Source: Physocladia obscura (Eukaryota; Chytridiomycota; Chytridiomycetes; Chytridiales; Chytriomycetaceae). Taken from it: 12,081 bases of DNA. The stretch covers positions 1 through 12,081 of the forward strand of contig JADGJH010001077.1 in assembly GCA_027596945.1 (NCBI GenBank), in the 5' to 3' direction. The notes beneath the pieces were generated by a model. It had not been told where the DNA came from and searched no databases. It worked only from the letters and a program-made list of their open reading frames with translations. Shown piece after piece: positions 1,510-12,081 of the stretch. The translations under genes and the position numbers were made by a program. Position 1 is the first letter of the stretch. Every line of letters starts with the position of its first letter.

Positions 1510-2082
1510 TTACATTGCGTCGCTCATGTCTTGTAAATTCGTCATCAGTCCATGTATATCAGCCTCTCTTTTAGCAATACTCTCCCGTCGCCGTTCAGAA
1601 TAAGCCTTCTCGTTCATTTCATTCGACGTGTCAGCACTATGTTGGCCATCTGGGTTCCTAAGCAGCACATTAAACAATAAATGAGATAATAACAAAAAAC
1701 TAAAACACAAAAAAACGAACATACAATTCATTGAACGAAAGTCGCAAAGACGCAGATCCCATCTCCAAATGCTTTCGAGCTAGATCCATCTGCATTTTTC
1801 TGTATTATAATCAAATTTAACAAAAGTTGACATTCAACAATCTGCTTGTTTTTTCTTGTTTTACCGCAATCCATCCAACTGCTTCCTCATTTTTTCTGCT
1901 CCACTTTGTCCATGACCGCCGGATCCGATACTACTACCGCCGCCAACTCCGCCGCCGCCGCCTTCTGAAGATGAGATCGAGGAGACTGCGGACTTTGCGC
2001 TCGAAGTATTTGGTCGCCGAGAGCTGGTGTTACGTCCAATCATCAGTGGCGGTTGTGCTTGAGGTGTCTTCTTCCCAAACAT
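1510..2082 (-). CDS. small coiled-coil protein, CCDC28-like
   Basis: Three exons on the minus strand (2082-1865, 1799-1725, 1657-1510) join through introns of 65 and 67 nt to give 146 residues. Both joins keep the frame: an Arg codon and then a Leu codon are completed across the junctions. Residues 1-40 are polar and Ser/Thr-rich. Residues 41-60 are a Gly/Ser linker with several Gly runs. From residue 61 to the end the protein is charged and predicted helical, with MQMDLARKHLEMG near 75-87 and a final ADIHGLMTNLQDMSDAM segment. The order and spacing of these two helical pieces resemble the C-terminal domain of the CCDC28A/B family, a small coiled-coil family of uncertain biochemical role. That match is my own eye alignment and is weak. 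The start at 2082 is the ATG that opens a sensible protein; the frame stays open further upstream but has no support. The neighbouring SPFH gene ends only 61 bp upstream on the same strand. Confidence 0.5.
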
Positions 2083-2143: not shown

Positions 2144-2521
2144 TTAATGAGCAGCAGCAATCTTCTTTGCTTCAGGAGCATCACCAGTTTGTCTTGGCAA
2201 CTCGTTGAAGTGGTGAAAGTCTGGTGGAGATGGAATACTCCACTCAAGAGAAACAGCAGCTGGTGTGACAACTTCCTTTCGGTTTCCATATTTGGTTTTG
2301 AAGAAAAATGCTGGGGAAAGAACTGTTGACCAGTAATCTGCTGCGAGATTGTGACCTGCTTGGTGCTCAAGAAGAAGGGGTGGGTCCAGAGCACGCAACT
2401 TGTCAGGAATGTTCAAATGTGTTGGAAAGGCTCCGCCTGGAATTAATATTTTTTTAATCACTAGTTCACCCGCCAAAAAAGAAGTACGAACGAATTTCAA
2501 CGCCTTCAACAGTGATTCCAT
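2144..2521 (-). other. overlapping open frame: possible free-standing Cox1-c isoform
   Basis: An ATG at 2521 inside exon 5 of the SPFH gene, in a different frame from that exon, opens 125 codons. The frame runs through intron 5 without a stop and enters exon 6 in its true frame. The first 18 residues (MESLLKALKFVRTSFLAG) are basic and amphipathic, like a mitochondrial presequence. Such a product would be a short protein of presequence plus Cox1-type tail, the size expected of nuclear Cox1-c proteins. I regard the spliced SPFH reading as the main product, because exon 5 encodes conserved SPFH sequence in the other frame. Use of this ATG is speculative. Confidence 0.2.
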
Positions 2522-3538
2522 AGTCGCTTTCTTTGGCTTTCAAAGCAGTTTCAACTTTAAGTGCAAGGTCTGAAGCAGTTGAGTCTAAGAGTGTTCCAGA
2601 GCTTCCGACAGAAATATTGGACACATTCTGCTCAAGTGCCCTCTTAATGACCTTGGCGGCAGCGCGTTCAGAATCAAAGTTGTTGCTCTCTGGGTCGACA
2701 TACAGAGCAGACTAAAATAATAACTGTAAGAAAGAATAAACAATCATCGAGAAGAAACTGAAACATAACGAACCTTTGCGGGGTCATTGACCTTGATGTA
2801 AGCCACAGCGTAAGCATTAACAGCGATTCCGTCTGGAAATATAAAGAATTAAAAACAAATTATTTTTGTCTTTTTCGAACAAATCAACTTCACCTTGAGA
2901 TTTCAAAGCAGGCGAGACTACTCCAAATGAGATTGTGTGGATATTCTTAACAGCTCTGACTTTGGTGAAAGGCAGTGTGATGTGGACTCCAGATGAAAGC
3001 ACAGACCCACTTTCTGTGACCCACACTTCACCATGTGGAACAATAGTTACACCCTGAATCAAAATGAGTCAGAAAAATGCACAAAAAACAAGAATGAATA
3101 CGCCATTGAACCATTATCTTAAAAACCCGTATTCATCGCTGATGAACAAGAATCGCTGCGCGAAAAGCTAGAAAGGAAAATATATACATACACCAAGAGT
3201 TGGCTTTTGACCTTGGAATGCGTCGGATGATGTCCAAAAGTCCCACTTCTTTTCGATTGGGTGAAGCTCGCGCACTTGCTCAGCTGGAACGCCGTTCGAA
3301 AACGGAGTGACCGGAACATGAACATATGGAACAACAAGGCCGTGACTGTGACGAACAGTCTGCGTAATAATAGATGGAGATTTAATTTTTTTTAAAACAC
3401 GACATGTTAAAGCAGATCGTGCAAGCAGCATTGAGTCAGAAAAGGCAAGGATACTGCTGGAAATATATTAAGTTGTACCTGGAAGACTGCTGCTTTTTGC
3501 TGTCGAGCGACGACGGTAGTAAGCTGAGTGAATCTCAT
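2144..3538 (-). CDS. mitochondrial SPFH (stomatin-like) protein with a Cox1 C-terminal tail motif
   Basis: Six exons (3538-3479, 3359-3192, 3053-2894, 2832-2774, 2711-2492, 2436-2144) give 319 residues with every junction in frame. Residues 1-30 are rich in Arg, Gln and Thr with no acidic residue, like a mitochondrial targeting peptide. Residues about 77-235 form an SPFH/band-7 domain: it opens GVTIVPHGEVWV, has DGIAVNAYAVAYIKVNDP in the middle, and ends GITVEGVEIRGAFPTHLNIP, matching the fold order of stomatin-like protein 2. SPFH proteins scaffold inner-membrane complexes. I see no membrane-spanning segment. Residues 285-303 read SLEWSIPSPPDFHHFNELP, the signature of the extreme C-terminus of cytochrome c oxidase subunit 1, a protein normally made in the mitochondrion. 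Nuclear Cox1 C-terminal pieces (Cox1-c) are known from Acanthamoeba and other protists; the fusion to SPFH is what the exon joins here imply. An alternative unspliced start at 3431 is also open. Confidence 0.8.
2195..2251 (-). other. Cox1 C-terminal signature within the SPFH gene
   Basis: These codons give the LEW..PSPP..H.F.ELP pattern (residues 285-303) that closes bacterial-type and mitochondrial Cox1 proteins just after the last membrane helix. The preceding residues, from about 236, are not SPFH-like and include aromatic, Pro and Lys/Arg stretches. A charged, Ala/Lys-rich 16-residue extension follows the motif. Confidence 0.65.
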
Positions 3539-3739: not shown

Positions 3740-6700
3740 ATGGAATTGTTCGAAACACTTGAGCGTATTGGTGAGTAACTGTGGTTTCTGCTGCATTTGT
3801 TTTCTCTTTTACTTTCACACCGACTTTGACAAAACAAATGTTAAATATTCAGGCCGCGGCTCGTTTGGTTCTGTTTACCGCGGGTAATTAATTGTCGCAC
3901 CAAGTTTTTTGTCAAGCTGATTAGCAAACTACTGCAGACGTCGAAAATCAAATGGGCAAATTGTCGCCATTAAAGTATTGGATTTAGACACTGATGACGA
4001 AGACATTGTGGATGTCCAGAAGGAAATTTCTGTTCTATCCCATATTGACAACGAATACATCACTCGCTATCACGGAAGCTATCTAGTGGGAACAAAGTTA
4101 TGGATCGTCATGGATCTGGCTGCAGGTGGTTCGCTTAGAAATCTGGTTCGTTTGCTTTGTGTCATTATTTTCGAAACATCAGTGACATACCGGTTGTTAG
4201 CTAAAATCTGGAGCTATTGAAGAGCGATGTATTGCCATTGTGGCCCGTGAAGTTCTATTTGCATTGGTGTATCTTCATAAATCCGTTAAAATTATACACC
4301 GCGACATTAAAGGTTTTTTTTTTGTTGTCTGATCAAACATACACAAACACAATAAAAATGTAGCTGCAAATATTTTGTTGACGGATACCGGTCACGTTAA
4401 GCTATGCGATTTTGGTGTGGCCGGCCATATGTTATCAGCTGGAGCTCGGCGAAATTCATTTGTTGGGACTCCTTATTGGATGGGTACTCAAACTCAACTT
4501 GGTTGTAATGTATCGATGTATTCACGTGTTTTCATTCAGCTCCGGAGATTATCACTCGATCACAATATGACTTCAAGGCGGATATATGGTCTCTTGGAAT
4601 AACGATAATAGAGTTGGCGACTGGAAATCCTCCCTTTGCAAACCACGATCCGCGCAAAGCAATGTTTTTAATTCCACGTTCGCGGCCAGCTCAACTCGAA
4701 GGAGACTTTTCCCCGCAGATAAAAGAATTCATTGCGCTTTGTTTGACAGAAGAGCCGGAGCAGGTGATACGTCTGGTACTTTAACATTGATTCTAAAAAC
4801 ATCGAAAAAATCAGAGACCCAGTGCCGAAGAACTGTTGAAAACGCGATTTATTAAAGGAGCACCCGCAAAAGGATTTTCTTTGATTAGAGACTTGATTGA
4901 ACGCCATGAAGCTTGGAAGGCCAGCAATACCGGCGATCAAGCGTCTATACTAGAGTAAATTACAAAAACAAATTATCTGAAATTGTAAATTAATGCATAC
5001 ATTTTTAGGGAAAAAGAACTGCCGGAAATTGTTGACGCTGAAGAAGATGCATGGAATTTCGATACTTTCAACTCGAAAAGAACGAGTTATCTTCCTTCAG
5101 CCGGTGGTCTTCGTGCAAGTAGAGTATCTCGACGAAGCCTTCGTCCTCCCAGCAAAGTTGTCAGTCCAGGATCAGTCTTAGATTTTGCAAATGAAGAGCG
5201 TCTCTCGACAAATATACTCGTTACAAATGAAGTTGACGATCCATCAAGATTATTAATTTCAGACGGAGACAAAGAAGAAAACAACTGGGCTGTAAGGGTA
5301 TGTGTGTGTGGTTGTGTGTATGTGTACGCTTTGTCAGTTTTAGGGTTCAATAAACTTTTTTTTTCAGCAATCATCCAAAAAAATGAATATACCAAATCTC
5401 GACTCTGTGAATGACGACTATTGGCTGACCGTACAATTCGAAGCAATGACGATTCCAGTTGAAAAAGATAAAGGCTCTCCGCTATCAGCTTTTCAAAACA
5501 GAGGTACCAGCATTTCAAACTGTTTACGTGTAAAATAACCAAATCCTGAAATGATCATTTAAAAAATACAGAAGAATCGCTCCTCAGCACGTGGAAAACC
5601 GATCAAAGCTCCAGTATAGCTCCTGGGTCAAAACCGAGCAGTCTTCCAGATCCAACGGAGCCTCTTTTTAAAGAAGTTCGAAGTAACTCGTTGGCAATGA
5701 TGATGTCTCCTGATCCTTCATTTCCGGCATTTGCAAAAATGGATAGACTTAATGATAGACAATCGCGATCTTTGGAATACGACGTCCGAAAACAGAATAT
5801 CAAAAACTTCTTTGCAAATTCACCTTCGACAAGCCCAAAATCCTCTGCATTATCTCTGAAGCTCCTAACAAAAGAAACTGTAGTTTCCGAGTTTCAAGAA
5901 AAGTCACCGGAGCTTTCCAGTGCACCGCTACTGAATGTACAATCAATTCAATACAAAAATGTCGACGGTCCTTCAACCGGGCCTCGTTCTAGCGAAGAAA
6001 GACAACTTAATATTCGATACTCAGGTGCCCCAACACTAAGCCAAAATCAATCACTTCCAAACATTGCACCGCGCTCGTCAAGTATTCAGCAATCTACTGT
6101 AGTGAATGCAACAGTGTCACCTCTCCGCCGCGGTGTGAGTTTGACAAAATCTTCATCAACGTCTTCGCCACAAATTATACGCAGAAGCCGTTATGACTCC
6201 ACAACAACGAAATCGCTGCCACAATCGCAAAATTCAAAAATTTCTGAGTCAACTACTGAAAATGGGAAATTGTCTTTGATAGTCTCTCCAACTGTGGGAT
6301 CGGGAACAGTTACAACGGCAACAACAAAGTCAGCTCCAGCTGCAACAGCTCCATTGGCTGCCATAACGCCAGTCAGCATCGATGCAAATCCATTAATCGC
6401 TGCCAACAATGTAACGACGCCATTGAATACCAAAATTACAGACGTGTCGTCAGAAAACTCCACACATCTATCCTCTGCAACGATGGCAACGACAAAAAGT
6501 TCTTCAGCAAAAATCGAAACGCTTGATATCCCGAAAGGTAATTTCCGAGTGTCAACGCCGCCATCTTCGTTGGATGTACACGAAATTATGCACCGCGGAT
6601 CGTTCGCAGGATTCTCAAATTATTCGCCTACAAAAATATTGGACCAAACTCCTCCAAAAGACGGTTCGTTAATTTCGAATGTTGTTGCTGAAAAAGTTGT

Positions 6701-6830
6701 GACTTTGCGTACCTTGGATTTCAACATGATGAAAAATGATGAAGATGTTCACAATGAGATTATGGCGCGATGCAAAGAAACAGTATATATGCTGGACATT
6801 TTTGAGGCTTTATTTCTTGAGCAAGAATGA
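3740..6830 (+). CDS. GCK-III/Ste20-type serine/threonine protein kinase
   Basis: Ten exons (3740-3770, 3853-3883, 3938-4145, 4201-4312, 4364-4483, 4540-4763, 4815-4954, 5009-5297, 5368-5503, 5572-6830) give 849 residues, all junctions in frame. The kinase domain lies at the N-terminus (about residues 4-255): glycine loop [11 protein letters not shown] (11-21), catalytic Lys33 in VAIK, Glu50 in helix C, HRDIKAAN with Asp125 and Asn130, DFG at 143-145, and the Ste20 hallmark GTPYWMAPE (162-170). All residues needed for catalysis are present. The closing [15 protein letters not shown] after the domain matches the GCK-III group (STK24/25/26; fungal Kic1, Nak1, Sid1), which act in cell polarity and cytokinesis through MO25- and NDR-type partners; that role is inferred. 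The remaining 580 residues are Ser/Thr/Asn-rich, low in complexity and probably disordered, with many potential phosphosites. Intron 8 (5298-5367) is TG-rich. The first two exons are only 31 nt each. Confidence 0.88.
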
Positions 6831-6942: not shown

Positions 6943-8636
6943 TCAGTGCTCTTCAATATATCTCTTCAAGTCCTTGTGGTACGATGCTCTCTGCAGATGT
7001 GCTGGTCTGTAGATTCTGCAATATTCCAGAATTGTGTCTTCGACTGTGAGTGGAGTAATGTCAAAATCTTTGAATGTGAGAATTTCAGAATTTTTCGTTG
7101 GAATTTCGTCAATATACGCTCTCTCAATCTCATCGCGCGAGATCTGCACGAAGGGCATCGTCAGATTAAAGGCATCAGCCAGGCGTCTTTTTCAATTTAT
7201 TTTCATTGTTATTATCTGTACATTAAGTAAAGCCAAACTTACTTTGCAACAAATTTACTCGGGAACCACACATTTGGGAAACGCTTGGTAACATCCAAAA
7301 AAAGATCAACGAGTTGTATGTTCCTATACGCACGAGGTCTGACAAAAAGCAAGTTTAAAATAACTTAATAAGAAAATAAAAACAACAAACCCATAGACTT
7401 CAACTATTTTTCCAGCTGCTCTGTCATCTTTCAAAGTTCTGGTGATTGCTGCGGCAACATCACCAACCTGTTTCGAAAAATCCAAAAACAGATGACACAA
7501 TCATAATAATTAATTAAAATCAAACCAATTAAAAATACAAACGTAAACAGGTCTCAGAATAGTTTGTCCCTTGTTGTAAATTGGCAATCCCACCATTCCA
7601 AATTTCAAATACCCTGTTATTTCGACATAAATTTTCTGGAATTAAATTGAAAAACTTACATCCAATTCTATTCCAAAATCTGTCTTCGACTCCATAAATT
7701 GATGACGGACGGACAATTGTTGCTTCTGGGAACTCTTCACGAACAGCTATTTCACCAAGAGCCTGAAATAATAAAAATTATCATTAATAATTCATAGGAA
7801 AATATGAACGAGGATTTTTTATACTATTCGCGCAATACCTTGGTTCTCAAAAATTCCGATTTGCTATCAACGTCGGCACCCAAAGCTGAAACATGCACGA
7901 ATTTCGAAACGCCGAGTTCTTTGGACAATCTGGCCAACTTTCGTGCAATATCAACATGCGACTGTTCCATCGTAAAGTTTCTTGAAAAAGCGAAAAATAC
8001 GGATTTTTGTTATTTGTTTGATAAGCCTTATTGATAACAACATACTTCGTCGGATAGCTTTTTCCAATTAAGTTGATGACAGTATCGGAATGTCTAATAG
8101 ACCCAATGAGTTGTTCATCGTTTCGCACGTCAAAACGCTAATGGCAATTTTCGATTTTGTCAATATAATATCTGCATTGTTGATTTTTTTGTATGATTAC
8201 CAACTGAACAATTTGACCGAGATCCCCCATCAACTTCAAATGACGTCTTTCATCGTCAGTCCCTCTGTATGGTGTAACGACTTGCGTACCAGTTTTTCCT
8301 AATAACAGAAAAAATAATTACAAAACAGATAAACCTCGCTCAGACTGTATTAATACGCACCAAGATTGTTGACAACGTATCGCCCTAGAAAACCAGTGCA
8401 TCCAAAAACCGTGGCGACGTGACCTAGTATATCGAACAAAAAAAATCGCAGAAAAATTAATATTAAAAAAAAGGAAAACAAGCTCCTTTACCAGAGTTTG
8501 AAGATCTTCCACCGGGTCCTTCTTGTCTGTTGATACCAGCCACGCCCGCGGTTCTTTTTGCGATTGCCGCAAACGATCGGCGCTGGTCAAGCGAAACGAG
8601 TCGTCCAAGTGAAGATGCTTTTTGTGTATGAAGCAT
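6943..8636 (-). CDS. NDUFA9: NADH:ubiquinone oxidoreductase subunit NDUFA9 (39 kDa)
   Basis: Ten exons on the minus strand (8636-8492, 8423-8361, 8298-8201, 8137-8046, 7980-7839, 7762-7660, 7613-7543, 7467-7391, 7338-7243, 7186-6943) give 376 residues, essentially the length of the human protein (377). Residues 1-49 are a basic mitochondrial presequence rich in Arg and Ser. The mature part opens [20 protein letters not shown], with the Rossmann dinucleotide motif G56-x-x-G59-x-x-G62 of the atypical short-chain dehydrogenase fold. It then shows [28 protein letters not shown] and [20 protein letters not shown], all in family order. NDUFA9 binds NADPH in the peripheral arm of respiratory complex I and helps stabilise the junction with the membrane arm; it is not thought to be catalytic. 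The start is the first in-frame ATG after an upstream stop. It lies 45 bp from the divergent TPGS2 start and converges on the kinase gene. Confidence 0.93.
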
Positions 8637-8681
8637 TTTTTGCACATGAAAATTCACGAAAATTCACGAAAAAGAAAGGAG
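8637..8681. promoter_or_regulatory. 45-bp divergent promoter region, NDUFA9 and TPGS2
   Basis: Only 45 bp separate the NDUFA9 ATG (8636, minus) from the preferred TPGS2 ATG (8682, plus). The stretch holds the direct repeat AAAATTCACG (8649-8658 and 8660-8669) and an A/G-rich run. Earlier in-frame ATGs for TPGS2 at 8628 and 8646 exist; the one at 8628 would make the two coding regions overlap. Either the promoters lie inside each other's coding sequence or this short segment is bidirectional. Confidence 0.5.
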
Positions 8682-9718: not shown

Positions 9719-11696
9719 ATGAACAAACACGCGGCACCAGTGGGAAGCGAGCAAGCGGCGAACGGTGAACCGCTGCGGCTGACAGATGGGCGGCGCGAAT
9801 CGTCGGCATCGAGCACATCGGCACAGTCGAACAGCAGACACAGCCTGCGCGCGCATGACGCGGAAAACGGAACGTTCCTCGAGATTCTGTCAACGCGAAA
9901 TCCGAAGGACGCGGCCGCTGGACTCTCCAGTGGAGTCAAAAATATCACCAAAGGCGTGCTTGGTGGTCTTGCGTCGCTGGTCGTGCTGCCCGTGCAGGGT
10001 GCGCGTGAGGACGGCGTCAAGGGCTTCGGTACGCCACCCGAACAACCCCTGGCCATTCAGCCATTCATCCGTCCATCTGCCCCGCCAGATCAATGTAATC
10101 AACAAACTAACAAAAAACTATCGCGCACCACGCTCGCGCTACAGCCGTCGGTGTCGGTCTCGGCGCCGCAAGTGCCGTCGCTATGACCGCCGCTGGCGTT
10201 GGCACCGGCCTTATGCAGATCGGCCGCGGAATCGCAAATACGCCCAATGCAATCAAATCGAAACATGAAGAGAAAGTTTGGGACGAACAGAAACGCGAAT
10301 GGTATCTGTACTCTTTGCCGGCAGAGGCCGAGGATATCCTGTCTGGCGCCAACGCTGACGCCTTGAAAACTTCCGGCTTGGTGAAAGATACCGCATTCTA
10401 TGAGCTCCTCGGAGTTCCTCCAACTGCGTCTCGTGATGGTTAGTGTCTGATCAAAAATTTTTCTTGATGTCACTTCATACGTCATCCCATCCACAGACAT
10501 CAAAAAGGCATACAGAATCAAGGCGTTGCGGCTTCACCCAGATAAAAACCGGAATGATCCAAATGCATCGGAAAATTTTCAAAAACTTGGTGCCGCATAT
10601 CAAGTGCTCATGGACGATCAACTCAGAGAAGCATATGATAAAGGAGGAGAGTCTGCCATTGGAAAACAGCAACTTATGGACAGGTTCGAGTTCATTTTTT
10701 ATTCTCTTTTTTCTTTTTTTTCTTTTTTCCTTGTCTTCTTTCCCGTTCAACTTCTCACGCCAAAAATAGTGCTCAGTTATTTGAAATGGTCTTCGGCAGT
10801 CAACACTTCGAAAATTTTGTAGGTGAACTCAAACTTCTTTCAATGACGAAAGGCCTTGACGAAATGCCAAGTGGCGATTTGACTGACGAACAGCAGGAAG
10901 AAATTTTCAAGAAGAATCAATATTTGATGTCTCGCGGACAAAAACAGCGTGAAGTTCGATGTGCCGTCAACTTGGCAAAATATCTAAACAATTACATTGG
11001 AGATGAATCGCCGAAACACGAAAATTTCCGTAAATTTCTTGAAACCGACGCAAAAGAACTCACAAGCACCAGTTTTGGTGGCGTTTTAATTGGAGTATTG
11101 GGATATGTATATGAGGAACAAGCTATCGATTTCCTTGGTTTCAAAAAAAGTGTGTCAGCTGGTTTGGGGATCGATCGGATGAAGCGATCAACGCATATCT
11201 TCTCCAATCAGCTAAAAGTGATGTCATCTGTTGTAAAGTCGTATTCTGTTGCTTCAAAGGCGCAAAAGGAAATGGAGGCTGCAGAGAAATCAAAAAAGAA
11301 ACCTGCTGGTGAAATTACCGAAGCAGATGAAGCAGAAGCAGATTCGGCTGCAGCCGCAATTGGAATGAAACAGATTGAAGAAAATTTGGGAACTATTGTG
11401 GAAACTATGTGGAATATTACCGGTATGTTCTTCTTTGATTCTTTTGACTTCCCTTTATTTATCTTTTTTCTTAACCAGTTCTCGACGTTGAGTCCACACT
11501 ACGTAAAGTTTGTTTCAAAGTGTTAAAAGATTCATCTGTGTCTCGTGAAGAGAGGAACGCAAGAGCCGAAGGTCTTCTAATAATGGGACAAATTTTCCAG
11601 CAATACAGCGTTTCATTCACCGCTGGCCTTGAAGAAATGACCCAAAAGATGAAAGCCAGCTCACAACCCCAATCTCCTGACCCTGATGATGACTGA
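9719..11696 (+). CDS. DnaJ (Hsp40) chaperone with DnaJ-X domain
   Basis: Five exons (9719-10028, 10145-10438, 10497-10683, 10770-11422, 11479-11696) give 553 residues with all junctions in frame. Residues 1-60 are polar and Ser-rich. Residues about 70-133 are Gly/Ala/Val-rich with zipper-like glycines, and could pack against a membrane. [13 protein letters not shown] (147-159) precedes the J domain (about 187-252), whose Hsp70-activating HPD motif is intact at 215-217. The DnaJ-X region follows ([17 protein letters not shown] from 270), with a Lys/Glu/Ala-rich insert near residues 405-440 and an acidic, Pro-rich C-terminus. There is no zinc-finger domain, so this is a class III J protein. Relatives include yeast Djp1 and Caj1 and plant DnaJ10-type proteins, linked to organelle protein import and membranes; the exact job here is inferred only. 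The first two exons are much richer in G+C than the rest. The start is the ATG at 9719, 37 bp after TPGS2. Confidence 0.88.
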
Positions 11697-11733
11697 TTTT
11701 GTGTCTGTGTGAGATAAGAAAAAATTTCCAAAA
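11697..11733 (+). promoter_or_regulatory. 37-bp spacer between DnaJ-X and AROM-type genes
   Basis: Again only 37 bp separate a stop and the next ATG on the same strand. The spacer is T/G-rich at first, then A-rich just before the ATG. No canonical polyadenylation hexamer is seen. Confidence 0.5.
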
Positions 11734-12081
11734 ATGATGAATCCAAACACAAAAAATAGTGAAAAGGCAACCACAATAGCTTCAAATGTGCCTGAGAGTA
11801 CTGTGCCAATCCACACAGTCCAAGTTCTTGGAATAAATTCAGTTACTTTGGGCTACGGAATTGCTGGCTATGTTGCTACCCAAATTGTCACTCTTGCACC
11901 AGCTTCAACATTCCTGATTGGAACTGACTCGAACATTGCAGGACTACATCTCGATTCCCTGAAACACTCTCTCCAGCTGGCATTGAATTCTGCCGGATCG
12001 AATACGCGTGTTCTCACGTATGTCGTTCCGCCTGGCGAAAGCGTAAAAACAAGGGAAACGAAAGGCCAGATTGAGGACTTT
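11734..12081 (+). CDS. 3-dehydroquinate synthase region, AROM-type (partial, runs off the window)
   Basis: A single open frame begins at ATG 11734 (a second ATG follows at once) and runs to the window end, giving 116 residues. After a polar N-terminal stretch of about 28 residues, the protein reads VQVLGINSVTLGYGIAGYVA, then ASTFLIGTDSNIAG, then VVPPGESVKTRETKGQIEDF. That is the order of the first strand, the dinucleotide-binding beginning and the PPGE..K.R.TK..IEDF motif of 3-dehydroquinate synthase. The last motif is the form seen at the N-terminus of pentafunctional AROM proteins of fungi, oomycetes and some other protists, rather than bacterial AroB. The enzyme makes 3-dehydroquinate from DAHP, step two of the shikimate pathway. 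The four other AROM domains, if present, lie beyond the window, so a single-domain enzyme cannot be excluded. No mitochondrial or plastid presequence is obvious. Confidence 0.8.
   Translation, partial: MMNPNTKNSEKATTIASNVPESTVPIHTVQVLGINSVTLGYGIAGYVATQIVTLAPASTFLIGTDSNIAGLHLDSLKHSLQLALNSAGSNTRVLTYVVPPGESVKTRETKGQIEDF

What the first reader, a model, noticed from the sequence alone, without database searches (positions are those of the whole stretch)
2144..3538. SPFH (stomatin-like) protein fused to a nuclear Cox1 C-terminal tail
Seen: six exons join in frame into one protein with a presequence, a full SPFH domain and, at residues 285-303, the SLEWSIPSPPDFHHFNELP pattern of the end of cytochrome oxidase subunit 1. 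Known: Cox1 is normally encoded in mitochondria, and in Acanthamoeba and several other protists the C-terminal piece (Cox1-c) moved to the nucleus and is missing from mitochondrial Cox1. Inferred: here the tail is delivered by a stomatin-like membrane scaffold, so an SPFH assembly could supply, or be tethered to, complex IV. I do not know of a described SPFH-Cox1-c fusion.
Basis: partly seen in the sequence, partly recalled or inferred. Interest (0 to 1): 0.88.

Follow-up and report, generated by a model that had tools for sequence, protein, structure and literature searches.

The report
Stomatin-like protein with Cox1 tail
This chytrid fungus, like chytrids from across its phylum, has a nuclear gene that joins a stomatin-type domain to the tail end of Cox1, the core subunit of the respiratory enzyme cytochrome oxidase, and the protein is predicted to enter mitochondria and would there complete a Cox1 that likely lacks its own tail.

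Summary
Six exons at 2144-3538 (minus strand) encode 319 residues identical to HK100_000390 of the chytrid fungus Physocladia obscura: a basic, acid-free N-end, an SPFH domain over Pfam's cut-off, and a tail homologous to the matrix end of Cox1. The fused architecture recurs in a closed family of 61 proteins; all 38 with an organism name are Chytridiomycota, and 59 of 61 hold PSPPD(F/Y)H (taxonomy 41-43, 64-70, 80-101). The Cox1-like part is the most conserved (68% mean pairwise identity against 43% for SPFH). The tail begins where a scaffold's coiled coil would begin and no membrane helix is seen, so 'Cox1 tail on an SPFH carrier' fits better than 'SPFH assembly'. Most likely it is a nuclear Cox1-c working in trans. 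A review (passages) says split cox1 was not found in fungi. Untested: whether chytrid mitochondrial cox1 lacks its own tail; no COX1 or COX3 was found in the assembly and no named chytrid Cox1 was retrieved.

The parts
2144..3538 (-). Whole coding region of the six-exon SPFH-Cox1-c gene (319 aa plus stop), identical to HK100_000390
3479..3538 (-). Exon 1: ATG and most of the putative mitochondrial presequence (residues 1-20; no D/E among residues 1-27)
   Evidence: targeting is inferred, no predictor was run
3192..3359 (-). Exon 2: rest of the presequence and most of a conserved N-terminal extension (residues 28-79, with E56, W59, W62 and S65 invariant in the 34-sequence alignment)
2894..3053 (-). 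Exon 3: end of the extension and start of the SPFH domain (from residue 80)
2774..2832 (-). Exon 4: SPFH domain
2492..2711 (-). Exon 5: end of the SPFH domain; the exon ends inside codon 223 and the Pfam match ends at residue 223
2437..2491 (-). Intron 5, 55 nt, GT..AG; it lies at the boundary between SPFH domain and tail
2144..2436 (-). Exon 6: linker (224-254), Cox1-like tail (255-303) and C-end (304-319), all in one exon
2195..2341 (-). Cox1-homologous tail, residues 255-303 (ADYW..FF..SLEW..PSPPDFHHFNELP); 68% mean pairwise identity in 34 sequences against 43% for the SPFH part
2213..2215 (-). Codon of His297, the histidine of the SPPPxH motif (here SPPDFH), invariant in the 34-sequence alignment
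   Evidence: motif and proposed role from passages of PMC5664110
2120..2125 (-). AATAAA, a possible poly(A) signal about 20 nt past the stop
   Evidence: sequence read by eye

Best explanation
This is a nuclear gene of a chytrid fungus whose protein carries the C-terminal tail of Cox1 behind an SPFH domain, and it would be imported into the mitochondrial matrix and there likely supply in trans the tail that the mitochondrial Cox1 probably lacks. Shown: the gene structure, the SPFH domain, the homology of the tail to the end of Cox1, and the presence of the same fused protein in chytrids of at least eight orders. Inferred: import by the basic N-end; a soluble or peripheral matrix protein, because no transmembrane helix is seen and the end of Cox1 faces the matrix; docking of the tail onto the Cox1 core, with the SPFH domain as a handle on the matrix face of complex IV; and truncation of mitochondrial cox1 after its last membrane helix. 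Inferred origin: a cox1 3' end copied to the nucleus was captured as the last exon of a duplicated SLP-2-like (mitochondrial stomatin) gene. It took over that gene's presequence and SPFH domain and replaced its coiled coil, in or before the ancestor of Chytridiomycota.
For: Frame, exons and identity to the public protein. SPFH: Pfam (34 of 34 relatives match Band_7 at E<=1, best 9.8e-20); AlphaFold2 model with 10-residue means of 90-97 over residues 71-240 except 82 at 181-190; Foldseek matches to stomatin, prohibitin, HflK/C and QmcA at 7e-9 to 1.4e-6, with query-normalised TM of 0.35-0.37 because only the domain aligns. Tail equals Cox1 end. Family: two searches gave 61 members, with a gap from E 3e-52 to 1e-2 where the next two hits are bacterial HflC-type proteins. 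38 of 61 carry an organism name; looked up by species, genus or order, 38 of 38 are Chytridiomycota. 59 of 61 hold PSPPD(F/Y)H; P0016 looks like a frame-slipped model and P0046 is a partial entry. Conservation: Cox1-like part 68%, SLEW..LP 79%, SPFH 43% mean pairwise identity. Import: 27 of 29 full N-ends have no D/E, median 5 K/R; hydropathy: 34 of 34 below a 19-residue mean of 1.6. SLP-2-like origin: the family's SPFH profile scores 61.8 bits on a chytrid SLP-2, 37-38 on two HflC-type proteins and at most 10 on the other Band_7 pieces of this genome (some of these are single exons); a separate SLP-2 lies on contig C26. Exon 6 begins where the SPFH match ends. The tail has one place in the assembly.
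Against: No chytrid mitochondrial Cox1 was seen, so a tail-less partner is not shown. COX1 and COX3 were not found in the assembly (searches had no positive control), and no named chytrid is among the 120 listed of 7998 Cox1 hits. The third proline of SPPPxH is Asp in the family. The tail may be less essential than assumed: papers on Diplonema and Euglena report no nuclear tail although mitochondrial Cox1 lacks the motif there. The AlphaFold2 model gives pLDDT below 50 for residues 262-270 and 279-307, which fits a tail that folds only on its partner but shows nothing. There is no transcript or proteome evidence for P. obscura itself, and no import predictor was run.
Confidence: 0.75

Rival explanations
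1. Mimic or regulator: chytrid mitochondrial Cox1 keeps its own tail, and this protein carries a second copy that competes for Cox1 partners, for example in the feedback between assembly and Cox1 synthesis known in yeast.
For: A regulatory role of the yeast Cox1 C-end is in print (title of Garcia-Villegas 2017 seen in the reference list of PMC5877523; Mss51 feedback in its passages). The 12 named fungal Cox1 among the 120 listed, none a chytrid, keep a LEW or IEW..SP..H end, read by eye. SPFH proteins such as SLP2 and prohibitins act on respiratory assembly (PMC7246575 passages).
Against: The Cox1 tail from DYW to LP with the His is kept at 68% mean pairwise identity across the phylum, more than expected of a mimic that needs only a binding epitope. 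The review states that in all identified split cases the piece is no longer recognisable in mtDNA (PMC5664110).
Confidence: 0.16
2. Tether or scaffold: an SPFH oligomer holds complex IV through the tail.
For: The SPFH fold is real, and the nearest subfamily, SLP-2, is reported to promote supercomplexes (PMC7246575 passages).
Against: Band_7 matches only positions 2-143 of 176 in P0001, against 3-174 in a chytrid SLP-2. Similarity to SLP-2 stops where its coiled coil begins, and after residue 240 the model has one helix, of 4 residues (low confidence there). No membrane anchor by hydropathy.
Confidence: 0.06
3. Artefact: two neighbouring genes merged by a gene model, or a chance motif.
For: One relative, P0180, is itself a 611-residue entry that appears to merge an SLP-2 gene with this gene.
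Against: The same joined chain is found in records of many genera and in near-full-contig frames of about 1.0-1.2 kb. The shuffle controls exclude chance.
Confidence: 0.02

Closest known systems
Nuclear Cox1-c (Gawryluk and Gray 2010; not read, known to me through recall and through passages of PMC5664110, PMC12699882, PMC7789003 and PMC7403612 that cite it)
   Same: Nuclear gene for the hydrophilic, matrix-side C-end of Cox1 with the SPPxxH histidine; likely imported and likely working in trans.
   Different: Here it is the last exon of an SPFH protein, and the host is a chytrid fungus; [quoted passage not shown] The passages I read do not say whether protist Cox1-c proteins have further domains, and I did not obtain one to compare.
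Stomatin-like protein 2 (SLP-2/STOML2) and bacterial QmcA/HflC-type SPFH proteins
   Same: SPFH fold; the family's SPFH profile scores best on a chytrid SLP-2; QmcA is the best sequence match in the PDB (E 6.8e-13 with a family profile).
   Different: Lacks the coiled coil and the Band_7_C region; no membrane anchor found; ends in a Cox1 tail. This genome also has a separate SLP-2.
C-end of mitochondrial Cox1 in other fungi
   Same: DYW..FF..LEW..SPP.FH..LP pattern over 49 profile columns.
   Different: There it is part of Cox1 itself (12 of 12 named fungal Cox1 in the list, read by eye; a strict SPP..H pattern fits 76 of all 120 listed).

Membership tests
Nuclear Cox1-c (split cox1) | Homologous to the C-end of Cox1, with the SPPPxH-type motif | tested here: met
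   Profile probability 97.8 over 49 columns; 53 of 53 tails hit; the motif reads SPPDFH, third proline changed to Asp
Nuclear Cox1-c (split cox1) | Encoded in the nucleus | tested here: met
   Five GT-AG introns, standard code, neighbours are a kinase, a DnaJ, an NDUFA9-like and an AROM-like gene, in a 21.8 Mb assembly
Nuclear Cox1-c (split cox1) | Imported into mitochondria | tested here: inconclusive
   27 of 29 N-ends free of D/E and basic; no predictor or experiment
Nuclear Cox1-c (split cox1) | The mitochondrial Cox1 of the same organism lacks the segment | not testable with these tools
   COX1 and COX3 not found in the assembly; no named chytrid Cox1 retrieved
SPFH / Band 7 superfamily | SPFH domain by profile and fold | tested here: met
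Stomatin / prohibitin-type oligomeric scaffold | Coiled coil after the SPFH domain | tested here: not met
   Similarity to SLP-2 ends at the start of that region, and the model shows no long helix after residue 240, where confidence falls
Stomatin / prohibitin-type oligomeric scaffold | Membrane anchor near the N-end | tested here: not met
   Hydropathy scan: 34 of 34 below 1.6; peripheral binding is not excluded

The most novel reading that the evidence does not exclude
In the phylum Chytridiomycota the catalytic core subunit of cytochrome oxidase is a two-genome protein: mtDNA encodes Cox1 up to its last membrane helix, and its matrix tail is an SPFH protein from the nucleus that has become a permanent subunit of complex IV. 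It would be the first split cox1 in fungi and the first case where the moved piece rides on a stomatin-type domain, which puts the completion of Cox1 under nuclear control.
Probability: 0.6. Interest if true: 0.85.

Novelty: new variant of a known kind. Interest (0 to 1): 0.73.

Why it matters
Cox1 is a core subunit that mtDNA almost always keeps. A chytrid-wide nuclear gene carrying its tail would extend piecewise gene transfer to fungi, give a marked fusion (SPFH plus Cox1-c) with which to test whether cox1 fission was ancient or repeated, and predict a new matrix-side subunit of complex IV that one structure or proteome could confirm.

Tried and rejected
Mitochondrial partner: the COX1 and COX3 families, a WFFGHPEV pattern and a Cox1 protein query found nothing in the window's genome. 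The two family searches rang in 8 and 9 of 14 control genomes; the other two had no positive control. A Cox1 search of the protein database listed 120 of 7998 hits, no named chytrid among them. A scan of viral contigs gave 5 pattern matches and no relative. Passages on chytrid mitogenomes (PMC6131824; PMC8672057) mention no truncated cox1.

Recollection that ciliate complex IV holds SPFH subunits: not supported (no paper; SPFH, stomatin and prohibitin have 0 occurrences in PMC10060162).

Search for an SPFH-Cox1-c fusion or a chytrid split cox1 in print: capped listings from an open-access library, with passages opened in 11 papers; none found. In one search most listed papers match 'cox1-c' in unrelated senses, so that search is weak.

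Considered: an unspliced reading from an internal ATG in exon 5 (about 2520) through intron 5 into the tail. It would give a free-standing tail; I tested it no further and take it as chance.

The last protein search went to the family profile rather than to a second try for chytrid Cox1; that was a choice. That search scored only the 7998 candidates sharing most words (and missed P0037, found), so distant fused relatives outside chytrids are not excluded.

Full report
What is there. The window is a whole 12.1 kb contig of a 21.8 Mb eukaryotic assembly. Its minus strand at 2144-3538 holds six exons that join into 319 residues. The protein is identical over its whole length to HK100_000390 of Physocladia obscura, a chytrid fungus of the order Chytridiales.

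SPFH part. Pfam Band_7 matches residues 80-223 at E 4e-11, and 34 of 34 relatives scanned match it at E<=1. The AlphaFold2 model, made with the 59-row alignment, has 10-residue means of 90-97 over residues 71-240 except 82 at 181-190, and falls below 50 in residues 1-30, 262-270, 279-307 and 313-319. Foldseek finds stomatin, prohibitin, HflK/C and QmcA; query-normalised TM is only 0.35-0.37 for these because just the domain aligns. By profile score the domain is nearest to SLP-2: 61.8 bits on a chytrid SLP-2 (the first half of P0180), 50.8 on the SLP-2 exon of this genome on contig C26, 37-38 on two bacterial HflC-type proteins, and at most 10 on the other Band_7 pieces of the genome, some of which are single exons. 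This organism therefore has an ordinary SLP-2 as well.

Tail. A single-sequence comparison is weak: 14 PDB sequences, all 14 Cox1, at E 0.083-1.1; the family profile reaches PDB Cox1 at E 0.31-2.6; and Pfam has no model for it. Family against family it is clear. I took 115 C-ends from the 120 mitochondrial Cox1 proteins listed (five without a recognisable end were dropped), and 53 of 59 chytrid tails (P0016, P0028, P0046, P0052, P0053 and P0059 left out as fragments or odd models). The Cox1 profile hit 53 of 53 tails at 17-32 bits. The best of 1060 shuffled tails scored 6.1 bits and the best SPFH part 1.4. Profile-profile probability was 97.8 with 49 aligned columns; the best of 100 column shuffles reached 5.4. 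The histidine of the SPPPxH motif is kept (His297, invariant in the 34-sequence alignment); the third proline is Asp.

Family. Two searches, one with the single protein (59 hits) and one with a 34-sequence profile (62 hits, of which 60 belong to the family; only the 7998 candidates sharing most words were scored), give 61 members together. Between the last member (E 3e-52) and the next hit (E 1e-2, bacterial HflC-type) there is a wide gap. 38 of the 61 carry an organism name; looked up at species, genus or order level, 38 of 38 are Chytridiomycota, from Chytridiales, Cladochytriales, Polychytriales, Synchytriales, Spizellomycetales, Rhizophydiales, Rhizophlyctidales, Lobulomycetales, Caulochytriales and unplaced genera. 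The remaining 23 are unnamed. 59 of 61 hold PSPPD(F/Y)H; the exceptions are P0016, whose tail looks frame-slipped, and P0046, a partial entry from Caulochytrium that ends after DYW..FF, so in that second class only the first part of the tail is seen. The mean pairwise identity among 34 sequences is 68% in the Cox1-like part, 79% in its last 19 residues, 54% in the N-terminal extension, 50% in the linker, 43% in the SPFH domain and 26% in the first 27 residues. The tail is thus the most conserved part.

Anatomy and mechanism. The N-ends are basic and lack acids (27 of 29), and no sequence has a hydrophobic stretch over the threshold (34 of 34); I infer import to the matrix and a soluble or peripheral protein. 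Similarity to SLP-2 stops just after the SPFH domain, and Band_7 covers positions 2-143 of 176 here against 3-174 in SLP-2, so the Cox1 tail has taken the place of the coiled coil. Exon 6 starts within codon 223, where the Pfam match ends. Together this reads as capture of a transferred cox1 3' end as the last exon of a duplicated SLP-2-like gene, which lent presequence and domain; such capture is a known route for transferred genes (general knowledge). In the entry P0180 of Phlyctochytrium planicorne an SLP-2 with its Band_7_C region precedes this protein in one 611-residue model that still holds the second protein's N-end inside. I read that as two neighbouring genes merged by annotation, a possible trace of tandem duplication.

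What is not shown. The key partner, a tail-less mitochondrial Cox1, was not seen in any chytrid. COX1 and COX3 were not found in the assembly (mtDNA is probably not in it), and searches elsewhere brought no named chytrid Cox1. The 12 named fungal Cox1 in the list, none a chytrid, keep a tail (read by eye). So the choice between an in-trans Cox1 piece and a mimic rests on the extent and conservation of the tail and on the pattern in protists: the review says that in all identified cases the piece is no longer recognisable in mtDNA (PMC5664110 passages), and the diplonemid paper says the motif is found in a nuclear Cox1C in other organisms whose mitochondrial Cox1 lacks it (PMC12699882 passages). 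Against a strict need for the tail, that paper found no such protein in Diplonema, and the Euglena paper found none in its transcriptome (PMC7403612 passages).

Known and new. Nuclear Cox1-c is known from many protists (PMC5664110 and PMC7789003 passages). [quoted passage not shown] In the papers searched (capped listings of an open-access library, passages in 11 papers) I found no SPFH-Cox1-c fusion and no chytrid split cox1; the original 2010 paper was not read. I rate the find as a new variant of a known kind, with high interest because one look at a chytrid mtDNA sequence can settle it.

Noticed in passing
1510-2082, minus strand: Neighbour gene starting 61 nt after the stop of the fusion gene; its exons joined by eye match CCDC28 just under Pfam's cut-off (24.6 bits against 25.6).
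   Followed up: partly
about 6943-8640, minus strand: Multi-exon gene whose frame at 7529-7777 matches complex I subunit NDUFA9 (E 2.7e-7 in the PDB; no Pfam match for two of its frames), another respiratory-chain gene a few kb away.
   Followed up: partly
3740-6830, plus strand: Protein kinase gene (Pkinase matches in two exons), followed by a long open frame at 5550-6830.
   Followed up: partly
about 9720-11697, plus strand: DnaJ protein with a DnaJ-X domain.
   Followed up: partly
11725-12081, plus strand: Start of a 3-dehydroquinate synthase / AROM-like gene, cut by the contig end.
   Followed up: partly
about 2144-2520, minus strand: An unspliced frame from an internal ATG through intron 5 would give a free-standing Cox1 tail with a presequence-like start; probably chance.
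   Followed up: no
P0180 (Phlyctochytrium planicorne entry): A 611-residue model joins SLP-2 and the SPFH-Cox1-c protein with the second protein's N-end inside, probably two adjacent genes.
   Followed up: partly
P0034 (Rhizophlyctis rosea entry): A member of this family is named 'Stomatin-like protein 2, mitochondrial' in the public record; the name hides the Cox1 tail.
   Followed up: no
residues 28-79 of the protein (3192-3338 and 3045-3053, minus strand): The N-terminal extension (EKKWDFWT..SDAF) is conserved at 54% with invariant E56, W59, W62 and S65, and no Pfam family matches it consistently.
   Followed up: partly
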